From contig JAUVAA010000008.1 of NCBI GenBank assembly GCA_030591965.1, forward strand, positions 1-39,890: a DNA stretch of 39,890 bases, given 5' to 3'. The translations under genes were made by a program, and so were the position numbers. The number at the start of each line of letters is the position of its first letter. The stretch's first letter is position 1. The notes beneath the pieces were generated by a model that worked only from the letters and a program-made list of their open reading frames with translations, did no database searches and was not told where the DNA came from. Shown piece after piece: positions 11,715 to 18,573 of the stretch. The DNA is from a bacterium. GTDB lineage: Bacteria > Pseudomonadota > Gammaproteobacteria > Methylococcales > Methylomonadaceae.

Positions 11715-12539
11715 TCATTCAATTGCAATATTTTCCGCATTCAACAAAATCACCTCAATTTCCTCAGTGATTTCCTCCTGACGGTATATCTGACTTTTTT
11801 TGTGTAGTTTTTCAGTGGTTTCATCCAGATGTCTGACGGCGTTATCTAAATGCTGCAAACGCTGATTATTTTCTGCAGCTAACGAGGTATATAAAACATT
11901 TTGTAGAGAACTAAAAATAGACTGATCAACCAGTTCCAGTAGAAACTGTGATGGCTGTAGATTTAACAGTGGCTCATTTTTATACTCAGAACTTTGCTTA
12001 ATACCCTTAAGTGGCGGTAATAATGCTTTCAGGGTAATATTCAAATGTTCATCCTGATGAAACAACACCGATAAGTTGAATAGCGCGTATTGATTATGCA
12101 ACTGACTGATGGCATCGCTGACACTGCTTAATACCTGACTAATTTCTTCGCTGCTATTTGCACCGGATAACTCTGTAAAGGCAAGATTGGTGTTTTGCAA
12201 TCGAACACATAATCGACTACCCACGGCAATGACACTATCAGGTTCTGCTTGTGTCAGTTGTTCAATCAAGCTTTCATTAAAATTACCGCAAAAACCTCGT
12301 TCAGAACCAATAATAATCATGATTAATGGCGTACTCATGTCTAGCTCGGGCAAGCCCGGATAAAACTGTAAAAAATCTGCTGCAACGGTTTCAATATGCT
12401 GTACGACTAAACTTTGTGCCTGCCGCAGTCTAATAAGTTTATGCATATCCATAAACGCCATATTTTTCAGCGAATGCAAAATACTGCGAATTTCCGTCAG
12501 GTGGGTAATATGCTGTTGCAGTGCGCGACTTTGGCTCAT
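11715..12539 (-). CDS. atpG: N-ATPase F1 gamma subunit
   Basis: Last gene of the N-ATPase operon. The 274-residue protein has the long N-terminal helix ([24 protein letters not shown]), the Rossmann-like middle with [13 protein letters not shown], and a C-terminal helix around [20 protein letters not shown] that forms the rotor shaft inside the alpha/beta ring. The extreme C-terminus ([19 protein letters not shown]) aligns with the usual RQ..IT.EI.EI ending. The start overlaps the atpA stop (ATGA), so translation is coupled. As in other N-ATPases it closes the operon, unlike housekeeping atp operons where beta and epsilon follow gamma. Confidence 0.92.
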
Positions 12540-14035
12540 ACTGCGTTTGCTTTTTTATCAGATAGAACGTTTACAAGCAATTGTCGCCACTCCTGCAAGT
12601 CGCTGTTTAATGCTAAGGGCGATTCTTGTACCGCCTGTTTTAAGCGTTCCAACTCGTCAGCAATTTGAGCCGGCTGCAAAGTATCAAGTAAGCCGTTGTT
12701 ATAGGCAATTAGCCAAGCCAGTTGAAATTCACTACTTTCTGGTGCTAAGCGATCTTGTTTTAAAAGTTCCCGTAGTAAACGCCCGCTTTTAATCCGCGCT
12801 TCCATTGACGCTTCTAGTTTTTGCCCAAAACGGGAAAAGCTTTCCAGTTCCAGAAACTGCAAATATTCTAGTTTTATTTTGCCCGCTTGATCACGGATTG
12901 CTGGATGCTGGGTTTTACCCCCTATTCGGGACACCGACTTACTAATATCTATAGCCGGGCGAAAGCCGGAAGCAAACAAGTCGCTATCCAGATAAATCTG
13001 TCCGTCGGTAATGGAAATCAGATTAGTCGGAATATAGGCCGCTATTTCTCCTTGTTTAGTCTCAACAATAGGCAGTGCAGTCATGCTGCCACCGCCATGC
13101 GTGGCATTCAATCGAGTAGAACGCTCTAACAATCGGGAATGAACGAAAAATATATCCCCTGGATAAGCCTCACGTCCTGGTGGACGGCGTAGTAATAATG
13201 ATAATTCGCGATAAGTGCGTGCGTGAGTTGCCAAATCATCATATACAACCAAAGTATCATGGCCTTGTTGCATCCAATATTCGGCTAAGGCACAACCTGC
13301 AAACGGGGCGATATATTGTAAACCCGGCAAAGCGGTCGCTTCTGCAACCACGCAAACGGTATAGTCCATCGCGTCATGTTGGCGTAGCAGCTCGATAGTA
13401 TTGACGATAGCCGAGCGTTTTTGACCAATCAATACATAGATGCAAAAGACATTTTTACCTTTCTGATTGATCACGGTATCTATAGCCAAAGCACTGCGCC
13501 CCGTGCCTTCATCACCGACCAATAACTGCCGCTGGCCTTTACCTATCGGAATCAGCGTATCAATAATTTTAATGCCGGTATACAGCGGTTCACGAACAAA
13601 TTCGCGCGCTATAATCGGCGGTGAAGCTTGTTCTAAATTACCACGTACGACATAAGCGGGCTTACTCTGCCCATCTAACGGCGCACCCAACGGATCAATG
13701 ACTCGCCCTAAAAAGGTATCACCAACCGGCACACTCAATGCATTTCGGGCAAGATGAACCAGTGTGCCTGCAGTGAGTGCTTCGGTTTGATAGAACAAAA
13801 TGGCACCAATGAGTTCACGGTTAAGATCGAAAACCATAGCGCGACTGCCATCGGCAAACATCAGAATATCTTCAATAGCTGCCGACGGTAGTCCTTTAAT
13901 CCAAGTAATACCATCGCCCACAGATACCACGACGCCTTGTTCTTTAATGTGTAATTTAGGCTGATAGCGATTTAGCCATTCATGTTGCTTTTGCAGTAGC
14001 TTACTATCAGCATACAAATCAACATCAAAAGTCAT
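12536..14035 (-). CDS. atpA: N-ATPase F1 alpha subunit with Arg in the P-loop
   Basis: A 499-residue F1 alpha subunit: N-terminal beta-barrel, nucleotide-binding domain, C-terminal helical domain. The ATG at 14035 is chosen over the ORF-track GTG (14056) because GGAG lies seven bases before it; this start overlaps the atpF end by 11 bases. The P-loop reads [13 protein letters not shown] where F-type alpha subunits have GDRQTGKTALALD, so the nucleotide-phosphate Lys is Arg (residue 180, CGC codon) and Arg-Gln is Glu-Gly. The later blocks [34 protein letters not shown] (part: [17 protein letters not shown]) and [18 protein letters not shown] are conserved, including the Arg of SVSRIGG. Alpha is the non-catalytic nucleotide subunit, so function may survive. 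Confidence 0.94.
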
Positions 14036-14774
14036 CGGCAAACTCCGCAAAACCACTTAACTCATGCTGCAAATTGGCATGTAATACCCAGGCATCTTTA
14101 TCAATTTTGAGTCCAGCAATCAGTGCTGGATCTAAGCTGTATTGAAACTTTAAGGGCTTATCGATTAATGCAGTAAACTTTTGTTCCAGTTGATGTACCT
14201 GGCTTTCACTGAGCGGATAAACGCTGCTAACTTGAATAGTCAGTGTCGTTTCGCTTTCCGTGGCTTGCAAAATTGATTGGCAGGCTTCTGGCAATTGTTT
14301 TAATTGGCTCAGCAATAAGTCAAACAGGTGCGTTTCCAGCTCTGGCCCAGCAGTCTGTTGCAGTAATAAAGTCGCAAAACGAGCACCATTTTGCAACGCT
14401 AAGGTTTGCTGATGACGTTGTAACTCTTGCTGTTGTCGTTGCAAGGCGGCTTGGTTTTTACTGCGTTCCTGTTCTAGTTCTTTTTGTAATATGACTAAAT
14501 GATGCTGCCGTTCCGTTTCCATTTGCTGATGCAATTGAGTCATGGCATTCTGCTTTTCCAGATTCCATTCCTGCAAACGATTACCATAGCTTTTCTTGAG
14601 TTCTTCCGCTTCCCGACGCATTTGTGCGGCTTCGGCTAAAGATTGGTCAATTTGCTGCTTGCGCTGGGTAATAATATTACGCACAGGTTTGTAAAACAGG
14701 CGCTGTAGTATCCAGACCAGAACCAGAAAATTGATAATTTCCAGTGAAAAAGTGGATAGATTAAATTCCATCAT
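14025..14774 (-). CDS. atpF: N-ATPase b subunit with delta-like C-terminal domain
   Basis: A stator protein of 249 residues, longer than the 156-residue b of E. coli. One N-terminal membrane helix ([20 protein letters not shown]) leads into a long charged coiled coil rich in Gln and Glu (about 40-130). The C-terminal 110 residues, ending [20 protein letters not shown] and [19 protein letters not shown], resemble the C-terminal domain of the delta subunit. N-ATPase operons lack a separate atpH, and this extension is thought to supply the link to F1. It may start at either of two adjacent ATGs (14774 or 14771). Its end overlaps the atpA start. Confidence 0.88.
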
Positions 14775-14786
14775 GAGTCGCCTTGA

Positions 14787-15053
14787 TTAATGAATGATAT
14801 AAGCCAGCAAGGGATTTTTAAACAATACGATCAAAATAATAACCAAGCAGTAAATCGCCAGTGACTCAATCATCGCCAGACCGATAAACAGAGTACGCAT
14901 AATCGAACGTTCTGCTTCTGGCTGCCTTGCCAGCGCTTCCAATGCGCTACTAATAGCTTTACCCATTGCCAAAGCTGGCCCAAGCACACCAATGGCGATA
15001 CCAATGACGGCAGCAATCGTTGAACCTAAAACTATCATAGTGATATCGCTCAT
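14787..15053 (-). CDS. atpE: N-ATPase c subunit with incomplete Na+ site
   Basis: The rotor-ring proteolipid: 88 residues, two membrane helices and the polar loop ARQPEA. Helix 2 has the ion-binding carboxylate in IESLAIY (Glu63, Ser64, Tyr68), which matches the Na+ ligand set of Ilyobacter tartaricus and of N-ATPases. In helix 1 the position of the Ilyobacter Gln32 (GPGVGQG), Glu in many N-ATPases, is Met30 here (GPALAMG, codon ATG at 14964-14966). A hydrophobic residue at this place is what H+-type rings such as E. coli have, so ion choice is uncertain and H+ is plausible. AGGA lies six bases before the start. Confidence 0.94.
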   Translation of the reverse strand: MSDITMIVLGSTIAAVIGIAIGVLGPALAMGKAISSALEALARQPEAERSIMRTLFIGLAMIESLAIYCLVIILIVLFKNPLLAYIIH

Positions 15054-15725: not shown

Positions 15726-16001
15726 TTAATCCTGTTCTTTGATTAATAGGTAAACATTGATTGCGCCAATAAACACACCCAATATCAATAAATTCAGCGT
15801 CCAGCTCATCGAATAGCCTGTTTCTAAACTATCCAACCAGGCTCCTAAATAAGCACCGCCAACAATAGGTAATACCAATACCAGCCCCAGAGTCCCTAGA
15901 TACAATGTCTGCGCCAGAATACTGCTTTGTTCACTACGCGCTTTTTTAATGCGTTTGACCTGATTATCTACCTGTCTCTGTAAGCGTTGTTTTTTATTCA
16001 T
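15726..16001 (-). CDS. atpQ: N-ATPase AtpQ (AtpI-like small membrane protein)
   Basis: A 91-residue protein with a basic, Gln/Lys-rich cytosolic N-terminus (KKQRLQRQVDNQVKRIKKARSE) and two membrane helices (about 29-51 and 63-85) separated by LDSLETGYSMSW. It matches the AtpI/ATPase gene 1 family, called AtpQ in N-ATPase operons and thought to help with assembly or Mg/Ca handling. AGGA is eight bases upstream of the ATG. It is followed closely by atpB but preceded by a 404-base gap, so it may depend on its own promoter or on read-through from atpC. Confidence 0.85.
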   Translation of the reverse strand: MNKKQRLQRQVDNQVKRIKKARSEQSSILAQTLYLGTLGLVLVLPIVGGAYLGAWLDSLETGYSMSWTLNLLILGVFIGAINVYLLIKEQD

Positions 16002-16055
16002 ATTACGCGTCCTATTTGAATGCTGTAATTGTTTTGAACATAGGGAACTGAGGTG

Positions 16056-16306
16056 GGCTGTCGAAATTCTCTGGATTTAATCAAATGTTACTTTCTTACT
16101 TTATGGATATTATAAAGGTAACTAAACCCTAAGCTACTTTGAAAAAAGTAATTTTAATAAAGAGCTTGTCATCCGACCTAAGGAGGAATCTTGAGCCTTA
16201 GTGCAAAGACAATATCTCTCCTATCATCGAGATGACGTGTTTTCTATTGTTTGTAGCCAATAATCAGGACAGTAATGCTCTTAATAAAAAGTCTTTTTCG
16301 ACAGCC
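16056..16306. repeat. MITE-like element between atpC and atpQ
   Basis: GGCTGTCGAAA (16056-16066) and TTTCGACAGCC (16296-16306) are perfect 11-base inverted ends around 251 bases with no ORF. The right end continues as TAGTGCTAAGGTACG, similar to the sequence after the same motif at 126-139, so this end sequence is repeated in the window. No transposase and no clear target duplication were seen. The gap 16002-16405 contains this element, a nested palindrome, a partial dispersed repeat and a G8 tract, and no coding sequence I can support. Confidence 0.55.
16168..16236. repeat. Imperfect palindromic repeat (GTCATC...GATGAC)
   Basis: GTCATCCGACCTAAGGAGG at the left and TCTCCTATCATCGAGATGAC at the right form imperfect inverted arms of about 26 bases around a short loop. 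This has the form of small palindromic elements scattered in many proteobacterial genomes. It sits inside the larger 16056-16306 unit and could fold in the atp transcript. Confidence 0.55.
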
Positions 16307-16328
16307 TAGTGCTAAGGTACGTTTAGCA

Positions 16329-16405: not shown

Positions 16406-18219
<1,814 letters not shown>

Positions 18220-18573
18220 TCAATCTAAACGTCGCATAAAAAAGAAACCCGCTACAGCTCCCCATGCCAGCATAAGTAGATCATGGATAATCATCTCAAA
18301 GCTTAAACTATCAATATCTCGAATGTAATCAAAAATATCATCTGAAACAAGAAAAGCCAGAATAATATACAAGGCAATTTTTATTGATATTTTCTCCTCA
18401 TACCAGCCCCATATACTAAGAATGGCAAACCCAATAAAAAACCGCACCAGTTTATGGGTTAGCATTTCTAAGCTAAACGTATCTATATGGAATGCAGAAT
18501 CCACAAAGTAAAAAACGATAACACCCATGCCAAGCACTGCATAAAATAATTTCATAGTATTCGTAATTTCCAT
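18220..18573 (-). CDS. Unrecognised four-helix membrane protein heading the N-ATPase operon
   Basis: A 117-residue hydrophobic protein I cannot place in a family. Four membrane helices are likely at about residues 8-25, 43-60, 64-80 and 97-113, with acidic loops (DSAFHIDTF, DDIFDYIRDIDS) and a short basic C-terminus (MRRLD). Its stop lies 24 bases before the preferred atpD start and the atpD ribosome site falls in that gap, so the two are very probably co-transcribed. The usual N-ATPase operon begins with atpD, and the small membrane subunit AtpR is missing here; whether this protein substitutes for it is speculation. The start could be Met1 or Met7. Confidence 0.75.
   Translation of the reverse strand: MEITNTMKLFYAVLGMGVIVFYFVDSAFHIDTFSLEMLTHKLVRFFIGFAILSIWGWYEEKISIKIALYIILAFLVSDDIFDYIRDIDSLSFEMIIHDLLMLAWGAVAGFFFMRRLD

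What the first reader, a model, noticed from the sequence alone, without database searches (positions are those of the whole stretch)
14787..15053. N-ATPase c subunit has lost the helix-1 Na+ ligand
The operon is of the N-ATPase type, whose rings are usually predicted to bind Na+ with a Gln or Glu in helix 1 plus Glu-Ser and Tyr in helix 2. Here helix 2 keeps Glu63, Ser64 and Tyr68 (IESLAIY), but helix 1 has Met30 (GPALAMG) where Ilyobacter has Gln32 and many N-ATPases have Glu. A hydrophobic residue there is the E. coli H+-ring state. So this enzyme may have switched to H+ or lost Na+ preference while keeping the rest of the site.
Basis: partly seen in the sequence, partly recalled or inferred. 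Interest (0 to 1): 0.6.

Follow-up and report, generated by a model that had tools for sequence, protein, structure and literature searches.

The report
Proton-type rotor in AtpR-less N-ATPase
A methane-oxidising bacterium carries a second rotary ATPase whose ion-binding ring lacks two of the groups that hold sodium, so it most likely pumps protons; this is the fixed state of a large, already partly described group of these enzymes and not an oddity of this species.

Summary
atpE (minus strand, 14787-15053) encodes Met30 at the helix-1 position of Ilyobacter Gln32 / Fusobacterium Glu32, with Glu63, Ser64 and Tyr68 kept. Met30 is invariant in 108 of 108 related N-type c subunits from several phyla, although neighbouring helix-1 residues vary. 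These form one supported clade (SH-aLRT 100), separate from the classical Glu30 N-ATPases. The clade lacks atpR: 0 of 104 operons with the atpQ-atpB interval in view have it, against nearly all Glu30 operons. Five related methanotroph genomes carry both types. H+ coupling is the best reading (about 0.8). "Lost" is not proven, because the root among the N-type clades is unresolved. The Glu30-AtpR link is mostly one deep split (3 independent contrasts, p 0.5), with exceptions. Glu30 itself is no proof of Na+: the B. pseudomallei Glu30 ring is H+ specific (PMC5376962). The same variant was described for Nitrospiraceae in 2025 (PMC12342949), and ProAD predicts about half of N-ATPases to use H+ (PMC11738941). 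This is a new member of a known kind.

The parts
14787..15053 (-). atpE, c subunit, 88 aa, Met30/Glu63/Ser64/Leu65/Tyr68
   Evidence: NF009998 111 bits, TIGR03322 102 bits, both below cut-off; PF00137
14964..14966 (-). codon of Met30 (ATG), helix-1 position of Ilyobacter Gln32
14859..14867 (-). codons of Glu63-Ser64-Leu65; Leu65 replaces the water-holding Thr67
   Evidence: ligand roles from PMC3692424
15056..15721 (-). atpB, a subunit, 221 aa
   Evidence: NF009954 341 bits, above cut-off 272
15726..16001 (-). atpQ, AtpI-like membrane protein, 91 aa
   Evidence: PF09527, above cut-off; the next gene atpB begins 4 bases later, so there is no room for atpR
16024..16309 (.). 286-bp insertion between atpC and atpQ with inverted ends GGCTGTCGAAAA/TTTCGACAGCC
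   Evidence: absent in congener L211 (23 bp there); repeat ends at about 15 other genome places
16406..16843 (-). atpC, epsilon subunit
   Evidence: TIGR03166, NF004871
16807..18219 (-). atpD, beta subunit
   Evidence: TIGR03305 584 bits, TIGR01039 above cut-off
14025..14774 (-). atpF, b subunit fused to a delta-like C-terminal part, 249 aa
   Evidence: TIGR03321; TIGR01145 (delta) matches residues 158-238
12536..14056 (-). atpA, alpha subunit
   Evidence: NF009884 720 bits, above cut-off
11715..12539 (-). atpG, gamma subunit

Best explanation
This is an intact, AtpR-less N-type rotary ATPase (atpD-C-Q-B-E-F-A-G) kept beside the F-type synthase, and it most likely pumps H+ at the expense of ATP. 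Its c ring binds one H+ per subunit on Glu63, helped by Ser64 and Tyr68. Met30 fills the helix-1 side of the pocket, and Leu65 removes the seat of the Na+-coordinating water. Na+ would keep only Glu63, Ser64 and a backbone carbonyl out of five ligands, too few to compete with H+. Shown: sequence, operon, clade-wide conservation, absence of atpR. Inferred: ion choice and pumping direction.
For: Two of the five Na+ ligand elements in F. nucleatum/I. tartaricus (residue 32 side chain, water on Thr67; PMC3692424) are absent. PMC2359735 states that all predicted Na+ rings have a polar residue at the Thr67 position and that loss of one ligand in a single-hairpin c likely hampers Na+ binding. Leu at that position is what the Spirulina ring 2wie has (alignment; that it is an H+ ring is general knowledge). 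Met30 and Leu65 are both 108/108 in the clade. The same Met..ESLAIY site is in the F-type c of Nitrospirota; in G1039, G1075 and G1084 it is the only ring found in the genome. Five genomes hold one Met30 and one Glu30 operon each, so the types are probably not redundant. Published prediction for the same site in Nitrospiraceae: H+ (PMC12342949).
Against: I found no measurement for any Met30 ring. Ser64 and Tyr68, which serve Na+ sites, are invariant. The host has Na+-NQR (NqrA), so a Na+ cycle is possible. Modelling cited in PMC10532065 claims that three polar ligands can suffice in Methanosarcina acetivorans.
Confidence: 0.8

Rival explanations
1. The ring is promiscuous: it prefers H+ at neutral pH but still carries Na+ through Glu63, Ser64 and a backbone carbonyl when Na+ or pH is high.
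For: Ser64 and Tyr68 are invariant. All rings characterised so far are intrinsically H+-selective and differ by degree (PMC3692424). Partial ligand sets are argued to suffice in M. acetivorans (PMC10532065). NQR present.
Against: Both the helix-1 ligand and the water-holding Thr are missing, and PMC2359735 holds that losing one ligand in a single-hairpin c already hampers Na+ binding.
Confidence: 0.14
2. The operon is decaying and the enzyme is not made: atpR is missing and a mobile-element-like insertion separates atpD-atpC from the rest.
For: 286-bp insertion at 16024-16309; only 1 of 17 congener genomes has the operon.
Against: All eight reading frames are intact, atpR is absent in the whole clade, and the congener operon is collinear at 85-88% DNA identity.
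Confidence: 0.05
3. An add-on to the best explanation: absence of Glu30 is mechanistically tied to absence of AtpR, because AtpR arginines are needed only for rings with two buried glutamates.
For: 0/104 Met30 operons and almost all Glu30 operons have AtpR; Gammaproteobacteria genomes 0/10 against 7/7; L235 has Gln30, Leu65 and no AtpR within the Glu clade. The AtpR-two-Glu idea is in PMC9927469 citing Dibrova 2010.
Against: Only 3 independent contrasts, sign test p 0.5. L230, L232 and L234 have Met30 with AtpR; L254 has Glu30 without AtpR.
Confidence: 0.3

Closest known systems
AtpR-less N-type ATPases of Nitrospiraceae (PMC12342949, 2025)
   Same: No Glu32, Thr67 replaced by Leu, no atpR, atpQ of PF09527, rest of the genes N-type, predicted H+
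   Different: Host is a methanotroph (Methylobacter-like); here the Met is shown to be invariant across phyla and the clade is supported by a tree
Burkholderia pseudomallei N-type ATPase, c17 ring (PMC5376962)
   Same: N-type operon; its ring was measured to be H+ specific
   Different: Has Glu30 and an atpR gene, like the other N clades
Methylacidiphilum N-like operon atpDCQBEF:HAG (PMC6688271)
   Same: Second ATPase of a methanotroph, no atpR, no full Na+ motif
   Different: Different gene order (atpDCQBEF:HAG); that c is reported to lack ESTxxY; its sequence was not compared here
Ilyobacter / Fusobacterium Na+ F-type c rings (1yce, 3zk1)
   Same: Glu65, Ser66 and Tyr70 equivalents kept
   Different: They have Gln/Glu32 and Thr67; here Met and Leu

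Membership tests
N-ATPase, classical (atpDCQRBEFAG, Na+ motif) | present beside a standard F-type (or A-type) ATPase | tested here: met
   own-genome PF00137 search finds F-type c (L003) and V/A-type K (L002) besides atpE
N-ATPase, classical (atpDCQRBEFAG, Na+ motif) | beta and epsilon genes first; delta absent or fused to b; atpQ of PF09527 | tested here: met
N-ATPase, classical (atpDCQRBEFAG, Na+ motif) | atpR (PF12966) between atpQ and atpB | tested here: not met
   4 bases between atpQ and atpB; no PF12966 match in the genome
N-ATPase, classical (atpDCQRBEFAG, Na+ motif) | complete Na+ motif in c (Gln/Glu32, Glu65, Ser/Thr66, Thr67, Tyr70) | tested here: not met
   Met30 and Leu65
N-type clade by phylogeny | a and alpha subunits group with N-type, not F-type | tested here: met
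   tree with F-type outgroup, split support 100
AtpR-less Met30 N-type subgroup (as in Nitrospiraceae, PMC12342949) | no Glu32, Thr67 to Leu, no atpR, remaining genes N-type | tested here: met
   Nitrospira loci L070, L089, L093, L097 carry the same Met..ESLAIY site
AtpR-less Met30 N-type subgroup (as in Nitrospiraceae, PMC12342949) | H+ coupling | not testable with these tools
   needs a labelling or transport assay

The most novel reading that the evidence does not exclude
Met30 is under strict selection because its side chain takes part in the site, for example by packing against protonated Glu63 or setting its pKa, so that the Met30/Leu65/AtpR-less clade is a functionally distinct H+-pumping rotary ATPase subclass that works alongside the Glu30/AtpR subclass in the same cells.
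Probability: 0.2. Interest if true: 0.5.

Novelty: new member of a known kind. Interest (0 to 1): 0.28.

Why it matters
Annotators and papers often read 'N-ATPase' as 'Na+ pump'. A large clade including methanotrophs, nitrifiers, Legionella, Microbulbifer and Geobacter relatives lacks both the helix-1 ligand and the water-holding Thr, so salt-adaptation stories built on its presence alone would be unsafe. Genomes with one operon of each type offer a clean test of what Glu30 and AtpR are for.

Tried and rejected
Single-species loss or sequencing error: rejected, all close relatives share Met30. A strict rule 'Met30 means no AtpR': rejected, three Desulfobacterota-group loci have Met30 with AtpR and one Glu30 operon lacks it. 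Coevolution of Glu30 and AtpR: left open, too few independent contrasts. Apparent absence of AtpR in L153/L190: an AtpR-like reading frame lies in the gap below the profile threshold, so it is not counted as a loss; L157 could not be judged because no atpQ was found next to it. Met-type loci with long atpQ-atpB gaps: L050 holds what reads as a toxin-antitoxin pair, and L124 shows no frame that the AtpR profile matches. Attempts to centre genome searches on loci failed for syntax. The Dibrova 2010 paper is not held, so its statements are cited through others. No structure prediction was run: a single hairpin model would not show the inter-subunit site.

Full report
Observation. Alignment to solved rings places Met30 opposite Glu32 of the Fusobacterium nucleatum Na+ ring (3zk1). 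The same alignment shows that the residue after Ser64 is Leu65 where F. nucleatum has Thr67.

Operon. The genes run atpD, atpC, atpQ (PF09527), atpB, atpE, atpF with a delta-like C-terminus, atpA, atpG. atpQ and atpB are 4 bases apart, so the atpR gene of the classical atpDCQRBEFAG order is absent, and no PF12966 match exists in the genome. The genome also has an F-type c with neighbouring a, b and delta genes (L003) and a V/A-type double-hairpin K subunit (L002). The nearest named relatives are Methylobacter and other Methylococcaceae. A congener has a collinear operon at 85-88% DNA identity; only one of the 17 congeners searched has it.

Distribution of residue 30. All relatives at 66% identity or more have Met30, including Microbulbifer, Legionella, Vibrio nereis, Nitrosomonas, Geobacter, Nitrospira and Desulfuromusa. 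A second group at about 50% identity has Glu30. In 108 Met-type N c subunits Met30 and Leu65 never vary, while positions 24, 25, 28 and 32 in the same helix do; in 63 Glu-clade sequences the counts at position 30 are 58 Glu, 3 Met and 2 Gln. Part of the sample was found with a pattern that includes Met30, but the genome searches that do not depend on it give the same split.

Tree. A tree of a plus alpha subunits, leaving out c, recovers the Met30/Leu65 operons as one clade (SH-aLRT 100). Its sister is a small Leu30 group that also lacks AtpR (98), and both lie apart from a clade with mostly Glu30 and EST (97) and a clade with Glu30 and ET (99), which mostly have AtpR. The order of these three at the base is unresolved, so 'lost' cannot be asserted. 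Met30 arose a second time inside the Glu clade (L230, L232, L234, with a Gln30 sister L229); there AtpR is kept.

AtpR. Where atpQ and atpB are both in view, 104 Met-type operons have a median gap of 18 bases and no AtpR; Glu-type operons mostly have gaps of about 230-335 bases that hold it. In Gammaproteobacteria genomes the counts are 0 of 10 against 7 of 7. L235 has no AtpR and has Gln30 and Leu65 within the Glu clade. But L254 has Glu30 without AtpR, and the tree offers only three independent contrasts (p 0.5). The association is real but mostly inherited; a causal link is a hypothesis.

Mechanism. In F. nucleatum, Na+ is held by residue 32, Glu65, Ser66, the Val63 carbonyl and a water that also contacts Thr67 (PMC3692424). 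Here residue 32 and the Thr are both nonpolar. PMC2359735 notes that all predicted Na+ rings keep a polar residue at the Thr67 position. H+ coupling is therefore the best reading. The same Met..ESLAIY site occurs in F-type c subunits of Nitrospirota; in three of those genomes it is the only ring found. Five genomes of one related genus keep one Met30 and one Glu30 operon each, which argues that the two types do different work. The host has NqrA, so a Na+ cycle may exist and does not decide the matter. The pump direction (ATP-driven export) is the general presumption for N-ATPases (PMC11738941) and was not tested.

Known work. Burkholderia pseudomallei's Glu30 ring is H+ specific (PMC5376962), so Glu30 alone does not mean Na+. 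PMC12342949 describes Nitrospiraceae N-type operons without E32, with T67 to Leu and without atpR, and predicts H+. ProAD lists 893 H+ and 914 Na+ N-type ATPases by motif (PMC11738941). What is added here is the cross-phylum invariance of Met30, the tree, the AtpR survey with its exceptions, and the extension to methanotrophs. I rate it a new member of a known kind.

Noticed in passing
window 16024-16309: 286-bp insertion with inverted ends between atpC and atpQ, absent in congener L211; about 15 other genome places match its end. Looks like a MITE or insertion-sequence end; it may split the operon transcript.
   Followed up: partly
L197:5763-6029 (same as L161): Orphan c-subunit-like gene, 54% identical to the window's c, with Glu63 replaced by Gly, Met30 by Ala and Tyr68 by Ala, open frame intact, no atp genes around it and response-regulator-like genes beside it.
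   Followed up: partly
L230, L232, L234, L229: Independent change of position 30 to Met (and Gln in the sister) inside the Glu30 clade, with AtpR retained.
   Followed up: partly
L050:4595-5324: Two small reading frames that look like an AbrB/PIN toxin-antitoxin pair inserted between atpQ and atpB of a Methylobacter N-type operon.
   Followed up: no
L051, L052: N-type operon split: beta, epsilon and atpQ lie on the strand opposite to a, c, b, alpha and gamma.
   Followed up: no
G000:C95 (L002): A third rotary ATPase, V/A-type, in the same MAG; its K subunit has two hairpins. The MAG is 6.5% contaminated, so membership is not certain.
   Followed up: no
window 18220-18573: 117-aa membrane-protein-like frame upstream of atpD with no Pfam or NCBIfam match; among the loci held only the congener L211 has it.
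   Followed up: partly
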